The notes beneath the pieces are model-generated. The model saw only the letters and a list, made by a program, of their open reading frames with translations, was not told the origin of the DNA and ran no database searches. Below, in pieces: positions 49,920-61,977 of a stretch of DNA of 64,000 nucleotides. Source of the DNA: Candidatus Electrothrix rattekaaiensis (GTDB lineage Bacteria; Desulfobacterota; Desulfobulbia; Desulfobulbales; Desulfobulbaceae); NCBI GenBank assembly GCA_032595675.1, contig JAVQMD010000004.1, positions 53,903 to 117,902 on the forward strand. The letters are read 5' to 3'. Positions within the stretch are counted from its first letter, which is position 1. The number at the start of each line of letters is the position of its first letter. Position numbers and translations under genes: made by a program.

Positions 49920-51143
49920 ATGCAGGAAATTATTGCTGCCGTTCTTACCTTTCTCGCTCTCCAGTTCCTCCTGGTCTGCCTGATTGTCCTAGCAAAGAAG
50001 AAACTCCAACCGGGCGGAGAGATCACTATTGATATCAACGACAAAAAGAAACTCCAGGTCAAACCAGGGAGTCGTTTGCTCACCACTCTGGCAAATGAGG
50101 AGATCTTTCTTTCCTCGGCCTGCGGCGGAGGGGGCAGTTGCGGGCAATGCCGGGTCACGGTCAAGGAAGGCGGAGGCAGCATCCTGCCCACTGAGCGGGG
50201 CTATATCTCCCGGCGGGAGGCCAAACAGGGTATGCGGCTGGCCTGTCAGGTCCAGGTCAAGCGGGACATGCAGATCGAAGTGCCCCCGGAGATGCTGGAA
50301 ACCCGGAAATGGCAATGCACAGTGGTCTCCAACGAGAATATCGCCACCTTTATCAAGGAGTTGGTGCTCAAGCTGCCCGAGGGCGAGGAGATGGATTTTC
50401 AACCAGGCGGCTTTATCCAGGTTGATATCCCACCCCATGCCCTGTCCTTTAAGAGCTTTGATATTAATAAAAAATTCTTATCCGACTGGAGCAAGTTCCG
50501 CCTTTTTCAGTATAAATCCAATGTGACCATGCCCATCACCCGTGCCTATTCTATGGCGAATTATCCTGGAGAAAAGGGGTTGCTCAAGCTGGATGTCAAG
50601 ATCGCCTGTCCACCTGGCGGCTGCGAAGAGCCACCGCCGCCGGGCAAGGCATCGTCCTATATCTTTAATCTGAAACCGGGCGATGAAGTGACCATCTCCG
50701 GCCCCTATGGTGATTTCTACATCCACGAAGGCAAGCAGGAAATGATCTACGTGGGTGCTGGCGCAGGCATGGCCCCGTTGCGCAGCCAAATCCTGGAATT
50801 GATGAAGGGTCGACATTCCAGCCGCAAGATATCCTACTGGTACGGTAGCCGTACTTTGCTGGAAGTGCCGTATCTGGACGACTTTACTTCGCTCTCTGAA
50901 AAATATCCCAATTTCACCTTTCACCTCTGCCTGTCCCGGCCCAAGGAGGAGGATAACTGGACCGGCCCGGTGGGGCATGTCCATAATGTCCTGTATGAGG
51001 AGTATCTCAAGGAGCACGAGGCACCCGAGGATATTCAATACTACACCTGCGGTCCGCCGATGATGACCCGCTCCCTGGTCAAAATGCTGATTGATCTAGG
51101 AGTGGAAGAGGATAATATCTATAAGGATGAGTTCGGGGGATGA
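49920..51143 (+). CDS. nqrF: Na+-translocating NADH:quinone reductase subunit F
   Basis: The 407-residue NADH-oxidising subunit has an N-terminal helix, a 2Fe-2S ferredoxin domain with C68, C74, C77 and C109, an FAD domain (RAYSMANYP) and a C-terminal NADH domain ([21 protein letters not shown]). Electrons enter the pump here. Its TGA overlaps the small gene that follows. A diverged copy of its last 85 or so bases recurs near 52870-52957. Confidence 0.97.
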
Positions 51144-51313
51144 TGAAGATTTTCTTGCTTACTTTCGAGCTTAGCTTTGTGGTTATTGTTGTTGCTGCTT
51201 TGATTATTAATTTTAGTAAACGGCGGCAGCGGAAATCTCCGCATGGGTTGACTGGGATGTGTCATCGGACTGGGGGGGTGGTTTGTGGGAAGTGTAGTGA
51301 GAGAGAGCATTAA
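51140..51313 (+). CDS. nqrM: Candidate NqrM, small membrane assembly factor for Na+-NQR
   Basis: A 57-codon gene overlaps the nqrF stop (ATGA). It has one N-terminal membrane helix (IFLLTFELSFVVIVVAALII), a basic stretch SKRRQRKS and a short cysteine-bearing tail with C41, C49 and C52. Size, topology, cysteines and the position right after nqrF match NqrM, which is needed to build the iron centre in NqrDE. The usual SCGGL motif is not present, so the name is a candidate. A second, broken copy lies at 52955-53136. Confidence 0.6.
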   Translation: MMKIFLLTFELSFVVIVVAALIINFSKRRQRKSPHGLTGMCHRTGGVVCGKCSEREH

Positions 51314-51317
51314 CAGT

Positions 51318-52877
51318 ATGAAAAAATTAGGTTTGGGAATACAGGCATTATCAGAATTTAAAGATAATAACTTCATCTATGTGGATAAGACGGAGCATAT
51401 TCACAGGTTAATAGACGATGGAAAATACTATTTTCTTTCCCGTCCCCGGCGGTTCGGCAAATCGCTGCTGATCAATACGCTTAAAGAGCTGTTTGAAGGC
51501 AACCGCAGGGTCTTTCATGGCTGTTGGATTGAGGAGAGGTGGCATTGGCAGCAAAAAAATCCGGTCATAAAAATAGATTTTACCCAGGTCGAATACCGGG
51601 AACTGGGCTTGAAAAAGGCCTTGGATCAATATTTGCTCCGAACGGCGGAGCAGCACAAGATCATCTTGCAGGCGGAAACCTATGCAGGGAAATTCCTGGA
51701 ACTGATCAAAACATTGGGCCAGAAATCAGGGACGGTTATCTTGATTGATGAGTATGACAAGCCCATTATTGATTATCTGGAGGCATCAAACATACAGCAG
51801 GCCGAAGAAAATCGGGAAATCCTGAAAACCTTTTACGCCGGGGTAAAGGGGCTGGATGAGCATATCCGTTTTCTTCTGCTCACCGGTGTTTCCAAGTTCA
51901 GCCGCGTTTCGATTTTCAGCGATCTCAATCACCTCAGAGACCTGAGTATTTCAGAAAGCGGTGCTGGCTTGCTCGGCTATACTGAGCAGGAAATTAGGGA
52001 AAATTATCGACCCTATATCAAGAAGCTGGCTGACTGCTTCGGCACCACGGAAGACAAGATCATGGAGCAGGTCAAGACCTGGTATAACGGTTACTCCTGG
52101 GACGGCAGAACCTTTGTTTATAATCCCTATTCAACCCTGAGCCTTCTCTCCTCAAGGGCCTTTAAAAACTTCTGGTTCGAAACCGGTACCCCGACCTTTC
52201 TGATCCAACATATCAAGGAATCCGGGGTAAAGATCAATGAATCGTTGAATAAACCAGTGAAAGAAAATGCCTTTAACGCCTATGATATTGATAATCTCAA
52301 CACCACTGCTATTCTGTTTCAGACCGGTTATCTGACCGTCAAGCAATGGGACCGGCTGGAAAACACCTATGTGCTAGATTTCCCCAACCGGGAAGTGAAG
52401 GAGTCGTTCCTTGATTTTATGGTGAAAAACTACGCTGACAGCTCTGCCGAAGAGATGGGGCATATTGTCGCGGTGCTGACCGAGGCCTTGCGGATAAACG
52501 ATATCCGGCGGTTTTTTGAGGCCATGCAGGCCCTGTTCAGCTCCATCACGGCAAAACAGCTGGAAAAAGTAAAGGCGTACGAAGGGTTTTATCATTCGAT
52601 CATCTATATCACCCTGAAGATGCTCGGGGTTCGGATCGACTGCGAGGTACAGTCCAGCTTTGGGGCCACTGATGCGGTGATCAAGAACGAGGAGTATATT
52701 TACGTTATTGAATTCAAAATGGGAACCGCTGAGGAGGCCCTGCGCCAGATCAAAGAAAAACGATATTGCGCTCCGTTTGCCGCTGACGGGCGGGCGGTTA
52801 TCATGGTTGGGATCGGGATTAATAAAGGGGTGCGGAACTTGACGGATTTTGTGACGGGGCCTGCGGATTGCCGATGA
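51318..52877 (+). CDS. P-loop ATPase-like protein with C-terminal PD-(D/E)XK nuclease domain
   Basis: The ATG at 51318 gives 519 residues. The N-terminal AAA-ATPase-like domain has RPRRFGKS at 42-49 (Walker A) and ILIDEYDKP with D144/E145 (Walker B). The C-terminal domain has D452 and E465-F-K467, the PD-(D/E)XK nuclease core. Such proteins occur in many copies in some bacteria, and their role is unknown; a mobile or defence link is often suspected. The last codons (PADCR, stop) lie in the repeated nqrF tail, so the natural C-terminus may have been cut or altered. Confidence 0.85.
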   Translation: MKKLGLGIQALSEFKDNNFIYVDKTEHIHRLIDDGKYYFLSRPRRFGKSLLINTLKELFEGNRRVFHGCWIEERWHWQQKNPVIKIDFTQVEYRELGLKKALDQYLLRTAEQHKIILQAETYAGKFLELIKTLGQKSGTVILIDEYDKPIIDYLEASNIQQAEENREILKTFYAGVKGLDEHIRFLLLTGVSKFSRVSIFSDLNHLRDLSISESGAGLLGYTEQEIRENYRPYIKKLADCFGTTEDKIMEQVKTWYNGYSWDGRTFVYNPYSTLSLLSSRAFKNFWFETGTPTFLIQHIKESGVKINESLNKPVKENAFNAYDIDNLNTTAILFQTGYLTVKQWDRLENTYVLDFPNREVKESFLDFMVKNYADSSAEEMGHIVAVLTEALRINDIRRFFEAMQALFSSITAKQLEKVKAYEGFYHSIIYITLKMLGVRIDCEVQSSFGATDAVIKNEEYIYVIEFKMGTAEEALRQIKEKRYCAPFAADGRAVIMVGIGINKGVRNLTDFVTGPADCR

Positions 52878-52957
52878 TGCCCCCCGTCTCTGGTCAAGAT
52901 GCTGATTGATCTGGGGGTGGAAGAGGACAGCATTTATATGGATGACTTCGGGGGATG
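52862..52957 (+). pseudogene. Second, diverged copy of the 3' end of nqrF
   Basis: The stretch matches the end of nqrF (about 51050-51143) with scattered substitutions: CTGGTCAA(G/A)ATGCTGATTG, then GTGGAAGAGGA and ACTTCGGGGGATGATGA. It encodes the same closing residues ([13 protein letters not shown], then DDFGG) but has no front part. It marks a duplicated boundary around the ATPase/nuclease gene. Confidence 0.75.
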
Positions 52958-53136
52958 ATGAGGATTTTCTTGCTTACTGCCGGGTTTAGTTTTATTGTTA
53001 TTCTTGTTGCTGCTTTGATTATTAATTTTAGTAAACGGCGGCAGCGTAAATCTCCGCATGAGTTGACTGGGATGTGTCATCGGAGTGGGGGGTGGTTTGT
53101 TCTTCTTGTGGGGAGGAGGAGCCAAATTCCCTGTGA
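52955..53136 (+). pseudogene. nqrM: Second nqrM-like copy, frameshifted in a G run
   Basis: The frame starts MMRIFLLTAGFSFIVILVAA and keeps the membrane helix and SKRRQRKSPHELTGMCHRSGG of the first copy. At 53087-53092 it has six G where the first copy has seven. Reading with seven G gives GGVVCSSCGEEEPNSL and a TGA at 53134-53136, a 60-residue protein with a CxxC tail closer to a metal-binding end; as it stands the frame runs on to 53164. It is a frameshift or a homopolymer sequencing error. Confidence 0.65.
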
Positions 53137-53160
53137 TCAATTACATTTAACAGCAGAAAT

Positions 53161-54219
53161 ATGAATAAAAAAACAACAGTACTGTTTATTATTGTCATTT
53201 TAGCAATATCTGGATGCGGAATGATCGCTGGAGGAATAGTAACATTAAACCTGCCATCATCAAAATATTCAAGAATAGATAAAGGAATTGATGAATATTA
53301 TTCAACAATAAACGATATAGATGGCGTTGTTGTTAAAGACAAATTAGGTACTTACTACCATAAAAAAATAGATCGGAATTTATTCCTTAAGTTTGTAATG
53401 TTAAATGAAGACTTTACAGCACTAAGACACATATTATCTAGCTCATACGGGATAATGGAGCCCGTATATTCATATGATGAAAACGTTAATCTATACCTTA
53501 ATTGGAAAGAAACTGAAAGAAGATACAAATATTTTACAAATGAATTGGGACTTAAACTTTCTCCATTAAATAATTCTATGGAATACCATAAATTAATCAT
53601 AGCGTCAGCAAAAGACATGCTTGATATTCACAGGAAATCAGGAGGGTTTGCTATAGGATTTGCTTCATTTTCTGGGGAAAATGGCTTGTATAATCCAAAA
53701 TATTTTGAAAAAATTATATCAAAAATAATTAAAAATGAGACTTATATTATAAGCAACACAAACACACCAGCATATTATTTTCAAGTCATAGATAATGATG
53801 GGGCTGAAAAAGCCCTACATAAGAGAACAAGCGCAGCTACATTTAATGCTATAGCAAATGACTTAATGCTACCTAATCATTATTCAATAAACTTTGTGCC
53901 GATTGATTATTTTATGCATCTAAGCAAAGGTGGCGGAAGTCGTTCGTACTCAGGATGCTCCTTTACCTCTAAGGAGGCAGAGACAAAACAAGCTGAATTC
54001 TTTACAGATTACACAGCGATACCTTACATTAGCGCAATAAATATGGTGATAAAAGAGAAAAATATGGCATACCAAAAAAAGTCCAAACAAAGGTATTTAC
54101 ATGAGTTAAATAAATATAAGAGCAGGCAGGGGCTAGCAGAAGAGGCATGCAAGATCGGATTCAAAGAAATAGGCCTCTCAGGTTTCATCGAGTCTCAAAG
54201 ATTACAGGTTAACAAGTGA
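53161..54219 (+). CDS. Unrecognised lipoprotein of the caspase/CHAT cluster
   Basis: The 352-residue protein opens with a lipoprotein signal (VLFIIVILAISGC, lipid cysteine at 19), so it should be held in the membrane facing the periplasm. The rest is mainly polar and helical with no motif I recognise. Its DNA is strongly AT-rich compared with nqr and the ribosomal genes. The TGA overlaps the GTG of the next gene (GTGA), so the two are translationally coupled and probably work together. Confidence 0.75.
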   Translation: MNKKTTVLFIIVILAISGCGMIAGGIVTLNLPSSKYSRIDKGIDEYYSTINDIDGVVVKDKLGTYYHKKIDRNLFLKFVMLNEDFTALRHILSSSYGIMEPVYSYDENVNLYLNWKETERRYKYFTNELGLKLSPLNNSMEYHKLIIASAKDMLDIHRKSGGFAIGFASFSGENGLYNPKYFEKIISKIIKNETYIISNTNTPAYYFQVIDNDGAEKALHKRTSAATFNAIANDLMLPNHYSINFVPIDYFMHLSKGGGSRSYSGCSFTSKEAETKQAEFFTDYTAIPYISAINMVIKEKNMAYQKKSKQRYLHELNKYKSRQGLAEEACKIGFKEIGLSGFIESQRLQVNK

Positions 54220-56369
54220 GAACCATTAAACTTTTATGCTATTTTTTTGTATTGTTTACTACTTTATTAAAATCTGGTTGCGCCAACACTCCAACGTATG
54301 GTGTACAAGACAACGATACAGAAAAACAAATAAATCGTATTAACAAAATAATAGATCTTCGCGAAACATCACATGATTACGATGCGTTAGAAAAGTATTT
54401 ACTAGAAAATCTTGTTGCTTTTTCAGACGATAAATACGCAAAACCAAGAATATTATTTGAATTAGCTGACATATATAGTTATCAATTGTTAGATATAGAA
54501 AAGGCTATTAAGCTTGATGAAGAATTACTCAAACAAACAATAGAAGATATTGATACCAAAAAAGGATATGCTCCTACATATAAAGTAGCAAACGAAACTA
54601 TACTAGGAGAAAATCCATACATCGAAAATTATGTAAAAATAAAAAAAGAAAACATAGTGAAAATTGTAAAAAAAAGACTATCTAAAAATAAAAAACTTCT
54701 CAAAGGAGATAGAACATTATCATATAAATACAGTCTATCAGATTTGAAAAGTCATATCTCGACAGTGAGAAATGACTTATCAAAGCAATCTATCAGTAAC
54801 ATCGATAGAAAAATGCTAATCTCAAGACTTATTAAGGCTGAATATGAAATAAAGAAACTTAGTCCAACATTCGAATATGATGCATATTCATACCTTATGA
54901 ATGGAGGCTTATCAAACAAAGATGTCGACCTAAGAGAAATAGATTTCTTAAGTCTTTCTGATTATCTAATTGGTACATATAAACAAACTAATAATATAAA
55001 TTTTGCAGAATCGGCATTAAATGTTATCTACCTCCCGTATAGCAACCTAAAAAAATCTGAATATAGATGGAGATATAACTCTATAGTAAATGAATACATT
55101 TCTATCTTAATAGATGCTAATTATGCTAAGAAAAACTATGAAGATATGCTTTACTATATCTCCCTTAATAAATCAAGAATGATTCTTGAAGAGCAGCTAT
55201 CGATCAATGATAATGAAGATGGTTTTATAAAAAGCCTCTTTTTTAGTACAAAAGTAGAAAAAAAGAATAATCAAAATTACCCTACAAAACAATTCTTCAG
55301 ACAGAAACTATCGAGTATTGATAACTACCTGGATTTCTATATTAACGGTACATATTCTAAGAAAAAGGTAACGTTCTCTAGCTTGGGGGGAGCATTTAAG
55401 AGTCAACGAACAATTCGGGATTTTAGCATAAAATCAAATGATGCGTACCGTGATGGATTTACAGAATCCTTTGCTCTCGCGACCTATATAAGGAGAGGAA
55501 AAATCTTTGCTGTTGAAAAGATTTCAGAAAAAAAACTTAAGAAATTAAAACAGCAAGTAAACTCTTCTCTGCGTGACATCGTCTCGCACAAAAAAGACGT
55601 TCAGCCCTCCCCAATACTAAGAGAGTTAAGTTATAATTTTTCATTACCCTCTTTTACAAAGGTAAGTCCAGACAAATGGTTAGCTCGCCATCCTCTTACG
55701 TTTCATCTAAATACAAACGTGGTTCGCTCGGTAAATATCATAATGAATAGTGAAGACACTTATGTTAACGATATAAATGTACTTGGTTTTTTCAATCCAA
55801 CACTGGACTTAACAGGAGCAGAGGAAGAAGCGGAGGCTATTCAGGAACATATACCAAATGCTCAATTATTTATGCGTGAAAACGCTACACTCAACAGATT
55901 AAACACAGAAAAAAACTTCAATATTATTCACTTATCTATGCACGGCAAATTTAATGCCCAGCAGCCTCAATTTTCGAAATTATTTTTTGCTGGTTCTAAA
56001 CCGGGGGAAGCCACTAATGATCCTAACGCATTATATGCAAGGGATATGAACAACCTACCCTCTTTAAGAAATAAAAAATTGATCTTTGCTGCTGCTTGTG
56101 AAACGGGAATAATATCTGCTGATAAAAACAACGAAAGTGAGTTAATGGGAATATTGCGCCCCCTCACAGCTTCACATAACAAAAATATCATATTATCACT
56201 GTGGAAAGTTGATGATGAAGCAACTAAAGACTTTGTATCTGTATTTTACAGCCAATTAGAAAAAAAACATAACATCCTAGAATCCTTTATCTTTTCTCAA
56301 AATAAAATACGGTCGGCATATCCGCACCCTTACTATTGGGCAGCATTCTACTTATCTCAATCTAATTAA
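54216..56369 (+). CDS. CHAT-domain protease, probable lipoprotein
   Basis: The 717-residue protein starts at a GTG overlapping the previous stop. It has an export signal ending LLKSGC (a lipobox with an unusual lysine at -3), a helical, repeat-like middle region, and a C-terminal CHAT (caspase-like) domain from about residue 500. The predicted catalytic pair is H576 in IIHLSMHGKF and C628 in IFAAACETG, both present. The end YYWAAFYLSQ is typical for CHAT. An exported CHAT protease next to a caspase is unusual. Substrate unknown; the lipoprotein before it is a candidate partner. Confidence 0.85.
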   Translation: MRTIKLLCYFFVLFTTLLKSGCANTPTYGVQDNDTEKQINRINKIIDLRETSHDYDALEKYLLENLVAFSDDKYAKPRILFELADIYSYQLLDIEKAIKLDEELLKQTIEDIDTKKGYAPTYKVANETILGENPYIENYVKIKKENIVKIVKKRLSKNKKLLKGDRTLSYKYSLSDLKSHISTVRNDLSKQSISNIDRKMLISRLIKAEYEIKKLSPTFEYDAYSYLMNGGLSNKDVDLREIDFLSLSDYLIGTYKQTNNINFAESALNVIYLPYSNLKKSEYRWRYNSIVNEYISILIDANYAKKNYEDMLYYISLNKSRMILEEQLSINDNEDGFIKSLFFSTKVEKKNNQNYPTKQFFRQKLSSIDNYLDFYINGTYSKKKVTFSSLGGAFKSQRTIRDFSIKSNDAYRDGFTESFALATYIRRGKIFAVEKISEKKLKKLKQQVNSSLRDIVSHKKDVQPSPILRELSYNFSLPSFTKVSPDKWLARHPLTFHLNTNVVRSVNIIMNSEDTYVNDINVLGFFNPTLDLTGAEEEAEAIQEHIPNAQLFMRENATLNRLNTEKNFNIIHLSMHGKFNAQQPQFSKLFFAGSKPGEATNDPNALYARDMNNLPSLRNKKLIFAAACETGIISADKNNESELMGILRPLTASHNKNIILSLWKVDDEATKDFVSVFYSQLEKKHNILESFIFSQNKIRSAYPHPYYWAAFYLSQSN

Positions 56370-56610
56370 TTAGTTATTTAAAAAAATAGTAACTTCTCAA
56401 TAAATGGTGGTAATTAATAAAATCAGGGGTTTATAGCAGGGAAAATATTAAGCCATGCAGAATACATACTAATATTCAAAGCTCGATATATCAACGAGTT
56501 AAATATTTACGCCGCATAACAACGTATAATATTGCCCATAAATTATGGCATATACCCGTTGAAATCGTTCACAGCCACCACTTATTGATAAGTTACAAAA
56601 AATATTACTT
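56370..56610 (+). other. Gap before the caspase gene
   Basis: These 241 AT-rich bases hold no gene. A short palindrome CCATAA-A-TTATGG (near 56536-56548) and a TATAAT (56528 region) are present, but no matching -35 element is clear. The caspase gene may have its own promoter here. Confidence 0.35.
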
Positions 56611-58089
56611 ATGAAGAACAAATATATTTTTCAACTCGCTCTTTTTATATCAATATTACCATCTCTTGTATTCGCTAAAAACTACGCTCTGATAATGGGG
56701 ATATCAAATTATCCTGTTCAACCATTACCAGGTGTAAAGAAAGACATAATTAGTGCTTCACATATATCAAAAATATTTGGGATAGATCCTGAAAATATCA
56801 CAACGAAAAAAGACAACGAATTAACCCTTAATGGAATGTACAGTACACTCCTTGAATTCGAAAATAAAATAACCAACGCCGATAAAGTCTTTATTTATTT
56901 TTCCGGACATGGAACCCGCTACAGTGATCCTTCGACTAATCTAGGTTGCGAACAAGCAATTGTTACCCAAGACATGAAATATATTAATAAAAATGAGCTG
57001 CTCGACAGGCTAACAAGAATATCAGCAAAGTCAAAGAAAACTTTCGTCTTTTTAGATAGTTGTTTTTCAGGAGGAATGGCTACAAGAGGCAAAGGCCTTC
57101 TTAGAAGAGGAGTGCCAACTATTAAGTTTTTTGCCCTAGGTCAAGACGCTGCTTGCTCATCTATAACAAATTTAAGGTCACGACCTACTCGTGATTTTGG
57201 TATAAAAAAATCTCAAGCTACCCCAAATTATTATTTATTACTTTCTGCCGCATCGGATGAGATTGCTATCGACGGAGGAGCTACTTATGGTGGGGTAGCT
57301 ACTTCCGCCTTTTACAAGTGTGTAAGTCAGCAGATAACACGAGACTTAAACAATGATACTATTATTACTTTGCGAGAAACAAAAAAATGCGCGCAAGAGC
57401 AGGTTAATAAATTAATAAGCAAATTTAAAATGGATGATAATAATTTTCCTTATACAAAACAGACTCTATTTGATAGCAGTGGCCCTGGGGGGAATATACC
57501 AATTGCGTTTAAAGCACAAAATACGACTCATTCATTCAAAACAGACTCGTTAGGAACTTCCAATTCGTTAAATTCATTTGAACTACTCAACAGTATTCAA
57601 CAAGGTGCCGATGCCACTCACTTAGTGACTATCGATCCTTCCAGAAAAAAATTTAGAATCGGTCGTGATGGCTTAAGAATGACAATCAAAACAAATAAGG
57701 ATGGTTATCTTACAATTCTATCTGCAGGATCAAGTGGAAAAATATTTAGGCTATTTCCAAACGAACTTGACTCACAGAATCAGATTACAGCGAATAGAGA
57801 ATGTGTTCTCCCTCGGAGTAACTGGGAAATACCCGCAAATGGCCCTGAGGGGACAGATCGTTTTTTAGCAATTGTTTCGGATAACCCCTATTTATTTGGA
57901 GACATTGGAAGCCCAGCTGGTCCCTTTTCAAGGCTTGAAAATACTCCTCATGGAGCGAAAATGCTCGTTGACAAGCTCTTAAATATATCTGGGCATTACA
58001 AATTCACGACGAGAGATTTTGTCATAAAAAAGAATTCGTACGTTGATAATTACGGAGCGGGAGTAATGGATGTCGAAGAGGTATTCTAA
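56611..58089 (+). CDS. Exported caspase-family (C14) protease with DUF4384-like C-terminal region
   Basis: The 492-residue protein has a signal peptide (MKNKYIFQLALFISILPSLVFA), then a caspase fold: YALIMGISNYP, the catalytic H100 in YFSGHGTR and C151 in FLDSCFSGG. From about residue 350 a beta-rich region (IKTNKDGYLTILSAGSSGKI, then RLFPNE) resembles DUF4384, often found fused to caspases. The family cleaves after basic residues in known prokaryotic members; the target here is unknown. It would act in the periplasm. No clear ribosome binding site precedes the ATG. Confidence 0.88.
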   Translation: MKNKYIFQLALFISILPSLVFAKNYALIMGISNYPVQPLPGVKKDIISASHISKIFGIDPENITTKKDNELTLNGMYSTLLEFENKITNADKVFIYFSGHGTRYSDPSTNLGCEQAIVTQDMKYINKNELLDRLTRISAKSKKTFVFLDSCFSGGMATRGKGLLRRGVPTIKFFALGQDAACSSITNLRSRPTRDFGIKKSQATPNYYLLLSAASDEIAIDGGATYGGVATSAFYKCVSQQITRDLNNDTIITLRETKKCAQEQVNKLISKFKMDDNNFPYTKQTLFDSSGPGGNIPIAFKAQNTTHSFKTDSLGTSNSLNSFELLNSIQQGADATHLVTIDPSRKKFRIGRDGLRMTIKTNKDGYLTILSAGSSGKIFRLFPNELDSQNQITANRECVLPRSNWEIPANGPEGTDRFLAIVSDNPYLFGDIGSPAGPFSRLENTPHGAKMLVDKLLNISGHYKFTTRDFVIKKNSYVDNYGAGVMDVEEVF

Positions 58090-58152
58090 CCCTGCACTCT
58101 AAGAATATTATTTTTACAAAGCAATTACTAAAATCACTACCAATCTCAGTAA

Positions 58153-58848
58153 ATGAATAAAGATCTTTATCCTGTAATAATGGCATTAATAGCCGGAGGT
58201 TCTGCGATAGCAGGTAGTTTAGGTGGAGTAATGCTCCAAAACAGAAATACAGAAAATTCGGAGCTAGAAAAGCGTAAGACAATTACCTTCAATAAAGTAA
58301 TAAACAGCGACGAAAAAGGTGGTCTTGCAGAACAAATTGAAAAGGCGATTAATTCTGGATTACTTCCTGACCCTGATAATAAAATTTTATCCGCAATTAA
58401 AGAAAAATCTTCCAAGATAGATTGTGGACTTTCAGTAGAGTTATCCAAATTTACTTATCCGTTCGGTGAAAAAATAGACTTGCAAGTTAGTACCAAGCAA
58501 TCATGTTATCTTTTGATCATTTCTATGGACACAAAAGGAGAAATATCAAAACTATATCCTTCTTCTTATGAAGAAAGCAAAAAGAAGGTACATAATATTA
58601 ACTTTCTTAATGATAGCTCTCCAATTATTGCTTCTCCACCTGAAGGGGCTAACATCATTTTTTTTATGGCATCAGCACAAAAAATTACTCTAACATCTAA
58701 TGAGCCCATCCCCATGTCACGAGGAGTGATAAGAACAAACGCTACTTCACCCGCCGAGGGAGCAGTGGATATCTTAAAAATGACCCAAGAAAATAAAGCA
58801 TTAAATGCTTTAGTAAGGGTTGTGCATACATACAACCTGAATCCGTGA
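58153..58848 (+). CDS. Membrane-anchored DUF4384-like protein
   Basis: The 231-residue protein has an N-terminal glycine-rich membrane helix (VIMALIAGGSAIAGSLGGVM) and a C-terminal domain with FGEKIDLQVSTKQSCYLLII and ISKLYPSS, similar to the beta region at the end of the caspase before it. It could anchor or regulate the caspase through related domains; this is inference. Same AT-rich composition and strand as the three genes upstream, 63 bases after the caspase. Confidence 0.7.
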   Translation: MNKDLYPVIMALIAGGSAIAGSLGGVMLQNRNTENSELEKRKTITFNKVINSDEKGGLAEQIEKAINSGLLPDPDNKILSAIKEKSSKIDCGLSVELSKFTYPFGEKIDLQVSTKQSCYLLIISMDTKGEISKLYPSSYEESKKKVHNINFLNDSSPIIASPPEGANIIFFMASAQKITLTSNEPIPMSRGVIRTNATSPAEGAVDILKMTQENKALNALVRVVHTYNLNP

Positions 58849-58865
58849 CGCTGTAAGTCGCACTT

Positions 58866-58895
58866 TCCCTCTCGGAGGGATAACCGGTTTTTTTT
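58866..58895 (+). terminator. Weak terminator after the caspase cluster
   Basis: TCCCTC-TCG-GAGGGA forms a 6-bp stem, followed after seven bases (TAACCGG) by eight T. The gap between stem and T run makes it imperfect. It lies 18 bases after the DUF4384-like gene and 15 bases before the 3' end of the group II intron on the other strand. Confidence 0.45.
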
Positions 58896-59017
58896 GCAAG
58901 AATAAATAAGGTAGAGTAGAGCACTGATCCAGCAGTTATCTTCGCCCTTCTAAAGACGCCTCGCCGCACGCGGCTACTACGTGTACCAAGAACTTACTTC
59001 CTCAATGCTCCCTCATC

Positions 59018-59051
59018 AAACCGTGCGTGCGGTTTTCCCGCACACGGCTTT
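59018..59051 (-). ncRNA. Group II intron domain V
   Basis: The 34-base hairpin has the AGC catalytic triad (AAAGCCGTGTGCGG), a GAAA-type loop and the return arm CCGCACGCACGGTTT with the usual two-base bulge. This is the most conserved group II intron element and lies 10 bases after the reverse transcriptase stop. Confidence 0.9.
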
Positions 59052-59061
59052 CCGATGCTCT

Positions 59062-60399
59062 TCATACCGAGGCATGCGCCGAACTCCAGCCCGCTTTTCC
59101 AGAAACCTTGTACAGCCCGTAACGCTCATAGAGGTCACGGCGAGGAAATCGACATAAAGCCGCTTTCCTATCCCTGACCTTATGGCGCTTCATCAGGTGT
59201 ATTCTCAGTCGGTCTTCCGCATGTTGCCTCGCCTTGCTCATCGCCATACTTGAGTTCCGAAAGTGAAAATAGTTCACCCAGCCACGAAGACCACGGTTTA
59301 CGTTATTCACCACATCACTCAGAGGGATGCAGGTCAGCTTCCTGTCTGTCAGTTCCGTCAGCCTCGCCTTAACTTTCTTCAGCGACTTATCCGACGGTCG
59401 TACATTGGGATACGGTTTACCGCTTCGAGCACCCCGACTCATCTGAATTGTAAAACCAAGAAAATCGAAACCTGTTGCAGCGGCGTCCACGACGTGCGTC
59501 TTGTCCTCATTGAGTTTAAGATCAAGCCGTTTCAACACATTATGCACCACTTCCATTGGTTTCTCTACATCGCCTCGACACATTACCACAAAATCATCCG
59601 CATAACGGACAATATGCGCCCCCAACTTGAACTTGAGGTTGCGTCGTTGCCATACACGATCCAGAATATGCAGGTAGCAGTTAGCCAACAACGGTGAGAT
59701 CACACCACCTTGCGGTGTACCTTTCCGATTGCCTTTCCCGCCTCCTACAGTTTTCTTCTTTCCACAATCATTTTCTCCAATCACAGGTGCCTTAAGCCAC
59801 TGCTTAATGAGGTGCAGGACACTCCCATCAACAATGCGTTCAGCCACTACGATCAGTAGTTTATTATGTGGTATCGTGTCAAAGTACTTCGACAAATCAG
59901 CGTCTATGACTTTCGTGTAGCCAGCCCAGAGCGTATTGGCAATATCATCCACGGCATTGTGGGCCGACCTTTTAGGACGAAATCCGTATGAGTGCTCACA
60001 GAAATCCGCCTCAAAAATCGGCTCAATAACCAGTTTCACTGCCATTTGCACAACCCGATCCCGAATAGTCGGAATACCCAGCGGACGAAACTCTCCGTTA
60101 CCTTTGGGTATCATGACACGGCGAACAGGCTGGGCCTGGTATTTTCTTTCCTTCAGATCATGGGCAAGCTCCCGAAGAAACGTCCCTACCCCTACCCCGC
60201 CCTCTATGGCCTTGAAGCTCACCCCGTCTACTCCAGGGCTTCCTCCATTGGCACGAACAAGCCTCCAGGCGTGATTGAGAACATCAGCCCGAAAAATCTT
60301 GTCGTAAAGTGCGTAGAAGCGATAGGCCGGTTCCTGCTTGGCCTTGATATACAGCTTCCTCTGTAGCGTCCTGATCTTTTCCGGGGTGACTAGCGACAT
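59062..60399 (-). CDS. ltrA: Group II intron reverse transcriptase/maturase
   Basis: The ATG at 60399 gives 445 residues opening MSLVTPEKIRTLQRKLY. The reverse transcriptase fingers and palm are complete: GVDGVS, RPLGIPTIRDRVVQ, YGFRPKRSAH, GTPQGGVISPLLAN and the active-site YADD at 266-269. The maturase X/thumb region (NRGLRGWVNYFHF) follows. There is no HNH endonuclease domain at the C-terminus, as in several bacterial intron classes. It should promote splicing and retrohoming. Confidence 0.95.
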   Translation of the reverse strand: MSLVTPEKIRTLQRKLYIKAKQEPAYRFYALYDKIFRADVLNHAWRLVRANGGSPGVDGVSFKAIEGGVGVGTFLRELAHDLKERKYQAQPVRRVMIPKGNGEFRPLGIPTIRDRVVQMAVKLVIEPIFEADFCEHSYGFRPKRSAHNAVDDIANTLWAGYTKVIDADLSKYFDTIPHNKLLIVVAERIVDGSVLHLIKQWLKAPVIGENDCGKKKTVGGGKGNRKGTPQGGVISPLLANCYLHILDRVWQRRNLKFKLGAHIVRYADDFVVMCRGDVEKPMEVVHNVLKRLDLKLNEDKTHVVDAAATGFDFLGFTIQMSRGARSGKPYPNVRPSDKSLKKVKARLTELTDRKLTCIPLSDVVNNVNRGLRGWVNYFHFRNSSMAMSKARQHAEDRLRIHLMKRHKVRDRKAALCRFPRRDLYERYGLYKVSGKAGWSSAHASV

Positions 60400-60913
60400 G
60401 GCAATCCCCTGACCCTCCACTCTTTGGTTGCATGAACAAAGTAGGGTTCCTTTCCTTGACTAGGGTTATGTTGTCCCTTGGTCTCAAACAGTACTATGAA
60501 CCCCTCCGACTCCCGCTCCGGGCCTCTGCGATTTCGTTTCCTTATACGCATCGGTTGGTGCTCTCACCACCCCCGGAGACGGGTCTCCAGCACTGGTCTG
60601 TAAATCTTCAAAAACATGCCATCCCTGCTACCCCGGGAGTCAACGTGTGCCACTTCCGTTATTCCGGCACCCATCCAACGGCCTTCCCCTTCCGTCCACA
60701 GGGTCGGCTCCTCCAATTGGTTTACGAGGCTACTCATAGGTTCACTTGCGTTACGGCCTGCTTTATTGTTGGGGGGAAACTCACGACCCTGTATCTCTAC
60801 AACGCCGCTTCCTCATACTACCGGGGCGTACGGACAATTCCCCGGACAGGACTTTAACCTTCTAGATTTACAAATATTACTGCGAACGGACAGACCACCT
60901 TTTCCTTCCCTAT

Positions 60914-60941
60914 TTGCCATTTCATCACAATAGGGTATAGT
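60914..60941 (+). promoter_or_regulatory. Possible promoter of the Rpn-family gene
   Basis: TTGCCA (60914-60919), 16 bases, TATAGT (60936-60941): a fair sigma-70 match about 60 bases before the Rpn gene and beyond the probable 5' end of the intron. Confidence 0.45.
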
Positions 60942-61003
60942 AATCTCATACTAAACAAACCGCCCGAAACTTCCTGCAACAGGATAACAGAGCCGATAAC
61001 CCT

Positions 61004-61921
61004 ATGTCCACCAAAGAACGCTACATCAACCTCTTCACCGATTACGGATTCAAAAAAATCTTCGGCGAAGAACCCAACAAGAACCTGCTTCTCGACTTTC
61101 TCAACGAGCTACTCAGGGAGGAACAGGGAGAAATCAAGGAGCTGACCTACCTAAAAACCGAGCAACTCGGCGACACCGACATTGATCGCAAGGCTATCTT
61201 CGACCTCTACTGCGAGAATGAGCAAGGCGAGAAATTCATTGTCGAGCTCCAGAAGAGCAAACAAAATTTCTTCAAAGATCGCGCCCTCTACTACTCCACC
61301 TTCCCCATCCGCGAACAGGCGGAACGGGGCGACTGGAATTTCAAACTTAAGGCCGTCTATACCGTGGCAATTCTGGATTTCGTCTTTGATGAGGACAAGA
61401 ACACACCAGAAAAATACCGCTATGATGTTAAGTTGACAGATACTGACACCAACCGGGTGTTTTATGATAAACTAACCTTCATCTACCTGGAAATGCCCAA
61501 GTTCACCAAGAGCTTGGACGAGTTGGAAAGCCGGTTTGACAAATGGCTCTATGTTATCAGAAACCTGAACCGACTGGAACGGTTACCAGACACCCTACGG
61601 GAACAGGTTTTTGAGCAGCTTTTTGATACAGCGGAGATTGCCCGTTTTACCCCGGATCAAGTGCGCTCCTATGAAAAAAGCCTGAAGTATTATCGCGATA
61701 TGAAAAACTCGCTGGATACGGCCTTTGATGACGGTAAAGAGGAAGGGAGAGCAGAAGGGAAAGAAGAAGGAAGAACAGAAGAAAAAAGGCAGGTCGTCAT
61801 CAACGGGCTGCAACAGGGACTTGAGATAAAAGTGATCGCTACCTTGACGGGATTATCTGTTAAAATTATTGAGAAAATATCCAGGGAACTCTCAGAGGAA
61901 GAATCAAAAGGGTCAGGGTAA
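61004..61921 (+). CDS. Rpn family recombination-promoting nuclease/putative transposase
   Basis: The 305-residue protein opens with the family signature (YINLFTDYGFKKIFGEEPNK) and has the PD-(D/E)XK core FDLYCENEQGEKFIVELQKS with acidic and E-x-Q residues. The C-terminal third has a repeated EEGRAEGKEEGRTEE stretch, common in this family, before a short helical end. Rpn proteins are DNA endonucleases linked to RecA-independent recombination and have been proposed to act against phage. It looks intact. Confidence 0.85.
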   Translation: MSTKERYINLFTDYGFKKIFGEEPNKNLLLDFLNELLREEQGEIKELTYLKTEQLGDTDIDRKAIFDLYCENEQGEKFIVELQKSKQNFFKDRALYYSTFPIREQAERGDWNFKLKAVYTVAILDFVFDEDKNTPEKYRYDVKLTDTDTNRVFYDKLTFIYLEMPKFTKSLDELESRFDKWLYVIRNLNRLERLPDTLREQVFEQLFDTAEIARFTPDQVRSYEKSLKYYRDMKNSLDTAFDDGKEEGRAEGKEEGRTEEKRQVVINGLQQGLEIKVIATLTGLSVKIIEKISRELSEEESKGSG

Positions 61922-61977
61922 AATGGGGGTCAAACCATTCTCGTAGAGGTCACAGAGGTGTTGGGCACTTAACGATC

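What the first reader, a model, noticed from the sequence alone, without database searches (positions are those of the whole stretch)
53161..58848. Candidate new system: exported CHAT protease, caspase, lipoprotein and DUF4384-like anchor
Four consecutive plus-strand genes share a strongly AT-rich composition unlike the flanking nqr and ribosomal DNA. All four carry export or membrane signals: lipoprotein, CHAT lipoprotein (H576/C628), caspase with signal peptide (H100/C151), and a glycine-rich membrane anchor whose domain resembles the caspase C-terminus. The first two are coupled by a GTGA overlap. Known bacterial CHAT/caspase systems (for example with CRISPR or gasdermins) are mostly cytoplasmic; two caspase-fold proteases facing the periplasm with their own tether suggest an envelope protease cascade, perhaps for defence, self/non-self recognition or cell-envelope remodelling.
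Basis: partly seen in the sequence, partly recalled or inferred. Interest (0 to 1): 0.72.

Follow-up and report, generated by a model that had tools for sequence, protein, structure and literature searches.

The report
Mobile operon of exported caspase-like proteases
A horizontally acquired four-gene operon in a probable cable bacterium encodes two caspase-fold proteases that carry export signals, a membrane-anchored partner and an orphan lipoprotein; exported caspases with this partner domain recur in related bacteria, but this exact four-gene combination was seen only here.

Summary
A (352 aa) is a predicted lipoprotein with no relative found. B (717 aa) is a CHAT protease (H576/C628) with an export-type N-terminus. 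C (492 aa) has a signal peptide, a caspase domain (H100/C151) and a C-terminal DUF4384. D (231 aa) has an N-terminal membrane helix and a DUF4384.

New here: the 241-nt B-C gap holds a 208-nt inverted-repeat element with an exact 8-bp target duplication. Without it B and C are 25 nt apart, so A-B-C-D was one tight operon. It sits in a hotspot behind nqrF where relatives carry other cargo.

Caspase-DUF4384 linkage recurs: 39 pairs against 0.7 expected in 193 genomes, 20 of them from one genome. About half of the C14-only caspases checked look exported. An exported CHAT beside an exported caspase was seen once more (G078); gene A never. B's lipobox is abnormal.

Verdict: a new variant of a known kind, the exported caspase-DUF4384 locus. 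The protease relay is plausible and untested; a defence role has no direct support.

The parts
53161..54219 (+). Gene A: 352-aa predicted outer-membrane lipoprotein (ISGC lipobox, Gly at +2), orphan
   Evidence: no family in Pfam, NCBIfam or PHROGs and one weak PADLOC hit, E 0.022; no homologue
54216..56369 (+). Gene B: 717-aa CHAT-domain protease, GTG start, export-type N-terminus with degenerate lipobox (LLKSGC); no TPRs detected in its N-terminal part
   Evidence: PF12770 residues 530-714, E 8e-27; hhalign to TPR-CHAT profile A3, probability 99.4, residues 520-715 only
55941..55943 (+). B catalytic His576 codon (LSMHG)
56097..56099 (+). B catalytic Cys628 codon (AACETG)
56389..56596 (.). 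208-nt MITE-like element in the B-C gap; 22-nt terminal inverted repeats, 91% complementary
   Evidence: relatives in the genus; 10 distinct copies, 8 with exact 8-bp duplications
56381..56388 (+). Left copy of the 8-bp target duplication AAAAAATA
56597..56604 (+). Right copy of the 8-bp target duplication AAAAAATA
56611..58089 (+). Gene C: 492-aa secreted caspase (C14) with C-terminal DUF4384; signal peptide ending LVFA just before the caspase core
   Evidence: PF00656 24-245, PF14326 348-426; AF2 model pLDDT 72.5, caspase part matches metacaspase-4, Z 25.6, rmsd 3.4, 244 aligned
56908..56910 (+). C catalytic His100 codon (SGHG)
57061..57063 (+). C catalytic Cys151 codon (DSCFSG)
58153..58848 (+). 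Gene D: 231-aa single-helix anchored DUF4384 protein (helix about residues 6-28, by eye)
   Evidence: PF14326 101-176, E 6e-9; hydrophobicity
52882..53116 (+). Left border: second, diverged copy of the nqrF 3' end and following sequence
   Evidence: 211-nt direct repeat, 89%; best outside match G006, 90.5% over 220 nt, and same coded end EEDSIYMDDFGG as G006
58911..60855 (-). Group II intron with reverse transcriptase/maturase at the right border, outside the operon
   Evidence: RF00029, RF02005; TIGR04416

Best explanation
Genes A-D are one horizontally acquired operon for a cell-envelope protease module. Shown by sequence: two caspase-fold proteases with intact catalytic dyads and export-type N-termini; a shared DUF4384 domain, fused to the caspase C and separately membrane-anchored in D; a lipoprotein A; ancestral gaps of -4, 25 and 63 nt; location in a cargo hotspot behind nqrF. 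Inferred: C and B act in the periplasm or at the outer membrane; DUF4384 is a docking or regulatory domain, so that D holds or gates C at the membrane by competing with or binding C's own DUF4384; B cleaves or activates a partner (C, or A as substrate or sensor) when an envelope signal is sensed; the result is limited proteolysis that remodels or damages the cell's own envelope. Whether the trigger is a phage, a neighbour or envelope stress is open.
For: Domains and dyads; export-type N-termini; all 7 distinct fused C14-DUF4384 proteins checked, gene C included, are export-like; 4 of 5 CHAT relatives with complete frames are export-like, three with a lipobox, and the one of G045 has a peptidoglycan-binding domain (PF01471, E 3e-17); DUF4384-C14 co-location 39 pairs against 0.7 expected in 193 genomes, 20 of the 39 from G008 and 2 from the window's own genome; operon spacing restored by removing the inserted element; A-D absent from the nqrF locus of G007, G004, G006 and G001, which hold other cargo; G078 places an exported TPR-CHAT gene before a caspase lipoprotein gene on one strand; the relative of C on a Deinococcus plasmid is export-like and clustered with SLH, PKD and a second caspase gene.
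Against: No homologue of A, so the four-gene set cannot be tested by conservation. CHAT-C14 neighbourhood is weak: 6 pairs against 1.0 expected, of which one is a cross-hit on a caspase gene and three look cytoplasmic. B's lipobox is abnormal and B could stay inside. D's topology is unknown. Nothing here tests contact, cleavage or a trigger. PADLOC gives no system.
Confidence: 0.4

Rival explanations
1. Two independent envelope units, A-B (lipoprotein and CHAT) and C-D (caspase-DUF4384 pair), were brought together by the hotspot and do not work together.
For: C-D type loci recur without CHAT (only the window, plus a G006 cross-hit, has CHAT and DUF4384 within 8 kb among 193 genomes); the exported CHAT genes of G066, G094 and G045 have no C14 match within 6 kb, though the contigs that hold them are short (12.1, 4.8 and 10.3 kb); no homologue of A; today a 241-nt gap separates B and C.
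Against: The gap is an insertion; the older spacing was 25 nt. GC is similar across all four (0.32-0.37). G078 has the CHAT-caspase pair in one run.
Confidence: 0.25
2. Envelope upkeep rather than conflict: C and B are periplasmic quality-control or maturation proteases, as the OmpA, TPR-protein and CsgG-like neighbours of related loci suggest.
For: Neighbours in G006 (OmpA, a TPR protein); a weak CsgG match, below cut-off, fused to DUF4384 in G195 (E 0.004); SLH and PKD genes in Deinococcus; peptidoglycan-binding domain on the G045 CHAT lipoprotein.
Against: Patchy distribution in a hotspot with an orphan lipoprotein is unlike a core upkeep function.
Confidence: 0.2
3. Secreted weapon or kin-recognition cassette: the proteases act on neighbours or on the shared periplasm of a filament and A is an immunity or recognition lipoprotein.
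For: Orphan lipoprotein coupled to the protease gene; accessory island; export-type signals. PMC3501461 raises a fratricide role for extracellular metacaspases (passage read).
Against: Only Sec-type signals were seen, nothing points to release from the cell, and no immunity relation is shown.
Confidence: 0.1
4. Accidental or decaying cargo without present function.
For: Element and intron insertions around it; single genome.
Against: All four frames are intact, both dyads kept, and both insertions miss the genes.
Confidence: 0.05

Closest known systems
Exported caspase (C14)-DUF4384 proteins and loci of Desulfobacterota, cyanobacteria and Deinococcus
   Same: Signal peptide, then caspase, then DUF4384; separate DUF4384 genes beside the caspase. 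DUF4384 is counted in 23 of 473 cyanobacterial orthocaspases (PMC8283722, table passage read; export not stated there).
   Different: Here the caspase is joined to a CHAT protease and an orphan lipoprotein; about 25% identity to the nearest relative found.
Exported CHAT proteins of Desulfobulbales relatives (G078, G066, G094, G045)
   Same: CHAT domain 29-39% identical to B for G094, G066 and G078, 30% for G045; export-like N-termini.
   Different: B lacks Pfam-detectable TPRs and a normal lipobox; its N-terminal part, about 520 residues, did not align.
Type III-E Craspase (TPR-CHAT with Cas7-11)
   Same: CHAT protease (PMC9729208, PMC9935389: starts of abstracts in a search listing).
   Different: Craspase is RNA-guided; no gRAMP/Cas7-11-like gene among the seven proteins scanned at 51-62 kb; B has no NCBIfam match at E up to 0.1, Csx29 included.
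Metacaspases (Arabidopsis MC4/MC9, GSU0716)
   Same: Caspase core of C superposes, Z 25.6 to 6w8r_B, 22.3 to 3bij_B.
   Different: Those lack a signal peptide and DUF4384 (recalled).

Membership tests
Peptidase C14 (caspase/orthocaspase), gene C | Family profile above curated cut-off | tested here: met
   PF00656 54 bits against 21.4
Peptidase C14 (caspase/orthocaspase), gene C | His-Cys catalytic dyad | tested here: met
   H100, C151, aligned with relatives
Peptidase C14 (caspase/orthocaspase), gene C | Caspase fold | tested here: met
   Model residues 23-304 to 6w8r_B, Z 25.6, rmsd 3.4, 244 aligned
Peptidase C14 (caspase/orthocaspase), gene C | Arg/Lys-directed proteolytic activity | not testable with these tools
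   needs enzyme assay
CHAT protease (TPR-CHAT), gene B | CHAT profile and His-Cys dyad | tested here: met
   PF12770 94.8 bits against 24; H576, C628
CHAT protease (TPR-CHAT), gene B | N-terminal TPR repeats | tested here: inconclusive
   No TPR family at E up to 1; hhalign aligned only the CHAT part; not folded
Bacterial lipoprotein, gene A | Lipobox by PS51257-like rule | tested here: met
   C19, ISGC
Bacterial lipoprotein, gene B | Lipobox by PS51257-like rule | tested here: not met
   Lys at -3
DUF4384 proteins, genes C and D | Family profile above curated cut-off | tested here: met
   66.7 and 36.3 bits against 27
Type III-E CRISPR Craspase | Adjacent gRAMP/Cas7-11 | tested here: not met
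   None among the seven proteins scanned at 51-62 kb; the rest of the genome was not searched
Known anti-phage defence system (PADLOC) | A complete system model | tested here: not met
   One caspase protein model hits C (E 7e-12); the only other hits (A, C and the AAA gene) are weak, E 0.0086 or worse; B and D have none
MITE, 56389-56596 | Terminal inverted repeats, target duplication, several copies, no gene | tested here: met
   no ORF of 80 aa there

The most novel reading that the evidence does not exclude
An extracytoplasmic caspase relay: a CHAT protease, a secreted caspase and a DUF4384 membrane anchor form an envelope-side counterpart of cytoplasmic caspase immunity, sensing envelope attack or non-self through lipoprotein A. 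In a filament whose cells share one periplasm (recalled for cable bacteria) it could act on many cells at once.
Probability: 0.12. Interest if true: 0.82.

Novelty: new variant of a known kind. Interest (0 to 1): 0.46.

Why it matters
Bacterial caspase-fold proteases are best known as cytoplasmic effectors (recalled). Here two of them carry export signals and were once packed in a single operon with a DUF4384 anchor, and DUF4384, still a domain of unknown function, is tied statistically to caspases across the order, with all fused forms checked export-like. That turns DUF4384 into a testable caspase docking or regulatory domain and gives a compact four-gene set to test for an envelope protease relay, in bacteria that probably live as long filaments.

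Tried and rejected
Gene A: sought with single-sequence searches in 96 relatives, 297 phylum and 257 order genomes (sets overlap), genome contigs, plasmids, viral contigs, PHROGs and PDB (one meaningless hit, E 0.47). No relative. Its AlphaFold2 model without an alignment is useless (pLDDT 33), so its fold is unknown.

A structured RNA in the B-C gap was considered because it folds far better than shuffles (z -4.5) and rejected: the structure follows the inverted-repeat element; Rfam gives six hits, all far below their gathering scores. An integron attC site was considered and dropped by eye. Promoter-like and terminator-like sites are not above shuffles.

Defence-island reading of the hotspot: PADLOC on 9 cargo proteins of relatives (not all of the cargo) gave hits for 3 of 9, weak or generic (TPR, viperin-like, a weak candidate); not used.

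CHAT-C14 pairs at G193, G157 and G114 were set aside as cytoplasmic by eye; the G006 pair is a cross-hit on a caspase gene. DUF4384 fold: the list is filled by the caspase domain, so DUF4384 was barely tested; two MALT1 rows span 22-458 but I draw nothing from that. Close-relative scan of C in genome contigs found none. A viral-contig scan with B gave two remote CHAT loci (22 and 27%), not pursued.

The export rule is a home-made hydrophobicity and lipobox rule, not SignalP; it accepts some internal starts (for example L066, start at residue 122, and L015, start at 149), so 30 of 61 and 9 of 12 are approximate; L010 and L037 are one protein. G306 and G578 also show both domains in one frame but were not fetched.

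The claim that the left border came from a G006-like strain is modest: 90.5% to G006 against 89.1% to the resident copy over 220 nt, plus the shared coded end and the 98.7% right flank.
Full report
What is there. Four intact + strand ORFs fill 53161-58848. A (53161-54219) has a standard lipobox (ISGC) with Gly at +2. B (54216-56369, GTG start, GTGA overlap with A) has a CHAT domain at 530-714 with H576 and C628. C (56611-58089) has a signal peptide ending LVFA, then directly a caspase domain with H100 and C151, then DUF4384. D (58153-58848) has an N-terminal glycine-rich helix and DUF4384. B's Cys is preceded by LLKSG; Lys at -3 breaks the lipobox rule, so 'CHAT lipoprotein' should read 'CHAT protein with an export-type N-terminus'. 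The stretch 53117-58898 has GC 0.339 against 0.481 on average elsewhere in the window.

One operon, interrupted. The 241-nt B-C gap folds strongly (z -4.5) because it contains an element of 208 nt, 56389-56596, with 22-nt inverted ends. Matches to it, mostly to its ends, occur in 7 of 8 genomes of the genus at E up to 0.01, the window's genome included. Among the 20 loci that call returned, a script found 10 distinct end-to-end copies of 208-254 nt, 8 of which, the window's included, are flanked by an exact 8-bp duplication. Taking element and one duplication away leaves 25 nt between the stop of B and the start of C. The gaps A/B -4, B/C 25, C/D 63 nt describe one operon. The element has a single match in the window's own genome, so it may have been in the island before transfer (inference).

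An island in a hotspot. nqrF is confirmed (TIGR01941). Left of gene A lies a second copy of the nqrF 3' end (52882-53092, 89% to the resident copy). Its coded end EEDSIYMDDFGG differs from the resident [12 protein letters not shown] and equals that of G006; G006 is also its best outside DNA match (90.5%, 220 nt), only slightly better than the resident copy (89.1%). On the right, 60885-61924 (PDDEXK_2 gene) is 98.7% identical to G006 over most of its length but 81-83% to G007 and G004, whereas the nqrF stretch is 87% to G006. In G007, G004 and G006 the space between nqrF and that gene holds other genes; G001 also has other genes after nqrF; tblastn of A-D against these loci and L079 (G002) finds nothing. 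A simple reading is transfer from a G006-like strain by recombination at nqrF (inference). A group II intron (58911-60855, minus) sits beside the operon and does not cut it.

Relatives. C: best match found is a Deinococcus sp. NW-56 plasmid protein, 25% over residues 22-429, 115 bits, against 75 bits for G008 and 71 for G006; it has both domains, an export-like N-terminus and lies with genes annotated NACHT, SLH, PKD, TPR and caspase. Fused caspase-DUF4384 proteins were seen in G006, G008 (two, one with swapped order), G548, G309 and G423, and partly in G283. B: nearest are CHAT proteins of G094, G066 and G078 (29-39%). Of five such CHAT proteins with complete frames (two of G066, one each of G078, G094, G045), four are export-like and one is not (G066, 482 aa); three have a lipobox, and that of G045 carries a peptidoglycan-binding domain (PF01471, E 3e-17), which fits a periplasmic place for this class. 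G078 has a TPR-CHAT gene followed by a caspase lipoprotein gene on the same strand. A: none anywhere searched.

Statistics. In 193 genomes of the order, DUF4384 (61 places in 33 genomes) and C14 (146 places in 55 genomes) lie within 6 kb in 39 pairs, 24 of 61 DUF4384 places, 16 of 33 genomes, against 0.7 pairs expected for random placement in 3.5-Mb genomes; fused genes count as pairs, 20 pairs come from G008 and 2 from the window's genome. CHAT (89 places, 45 genomes) with C14 gives 6 pairs against 1.0 expected; one is a cross-hit, three look cytoplasmic by eye, leaving the window and G078. Export-like N-termini: 7 of 7 distinct fused proteins, 30 of 61 C14-only rows, 9 of 12 DUF4384-only rows (gene D included), 5'-cut rows dropped. 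These rows are the loci I had fetched, not a random sample.

Structure. The model of C on a 34-row alignment has mean pLDDT 72.5; residues 23-304 match metacaspase-4 with Z 25.6, rmsd 3.4, 244 aligned. DUF4384's fold was not tested on its own.

Mechanism. Most likely an envelope protease module in which DUF4384 serves docking or regulation and D ties the caspase to the membrane, with B upstream or parallel and A as sensor, substrate or inhibitor. Only anatomy, linkage and location signals are shown. Defence, kin recognition and envelope upkeep remain open.

Literature. DUF4384 occurs in 5 papers of the held library; passages of PMC7475262, PMC8283722 and PMC6426788 mention it as an accessory domain of orthocaspases or their pseudo-variants. 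PMC3501461 (passages) reports possible signal peptides and operons with several metacaspases in four groups including Deltaproteobacteria. 'Cable bacteria' with 'caspase' gave 0 papers. Searches combining CHAT domain, caspase and lipoprotein or signal peptide gave 2 and 1 papers; passages of one, PMC10907252, were read and concern DGR target proteins; the other, PMC6722718, was seen in the listing only. So I found no description of this operon, within those searches.

Host. Unnamed. G007 is one contig of 5,089,909 nt; PMC10926707 (passages) reports a closed 5.09-Mbp genome of Candidatus Electrothrix scaldis, and PMC12093952 (passages) says that members of that genus other than strain YB6 encode NQR. 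I infer a Candidatus Electrothrix-like cable bacterium.

Noticed in passing
56389-56596; L122, L127, L129, L131, L133, L137, L140: A MITE family of 208-254 nt with 22-nt inverted ends and 8-bp target duplications is spread through the genus; a paper search for 'cable bacteria' with 'miniature inverted-repeat' gave 0.
   Followed up: partly
51285-52877, repeats 51067-51277 and 52882-53092: An AAA-ATPase_like/PDDEXK_9 gene sits between two diverged copies of the nqrF end; in relatives copies of this gene lie at or near the same place, sometimes split.
   Followed up: partly
51143-51300 and 52955-53164: The small ORF after nqrF runs on into foreign sequence in both copies; the 69-aa frame at 52955 has no Pfam match at E up to 0.001, so whether it is a broken nqrM is open.
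   Followed up: partly
61004-61921: PDDEXK_2 transposase-type gene 98.7% identical to G006 while the nqrF stretch is 87%, marking recent exchange.
   Followed up: partly
L054:3903-11683 (G008): Cluster of three export-like caspase genes and seven DUF4384 matches, followed by a sigma-70 family gene (Sigma70_r2 E 4e-6); the densest caspase-DUF4384 locus met.
   Followed up: partly
L073:5160-8582 (G045): CHAT lipoprotein with a peptidoglycan-binding domain and nine TPR_12 stretches, a likely cell-wall-bound CHAT protease.
   Followed up: partly
L071:1170-4256 (G094): CHAT lipoprotein that also carries ankyrin repeats (Ank_2 E 1e-21), with a second CHAT gene upstream on the same short contig.
   Followed up: no
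L069:3621-4454 (G195): DUF4384 fused to a weak CsgG-like part (E 0.004, below cut-off), a hint of an outer-membrane link for DUF4384.
   Followed up: no
G000 whole genome: The window's genome has 9 C14 and 5 CHAT places in all, four of the C14 within 15 kb on C1.
   Followed up: no
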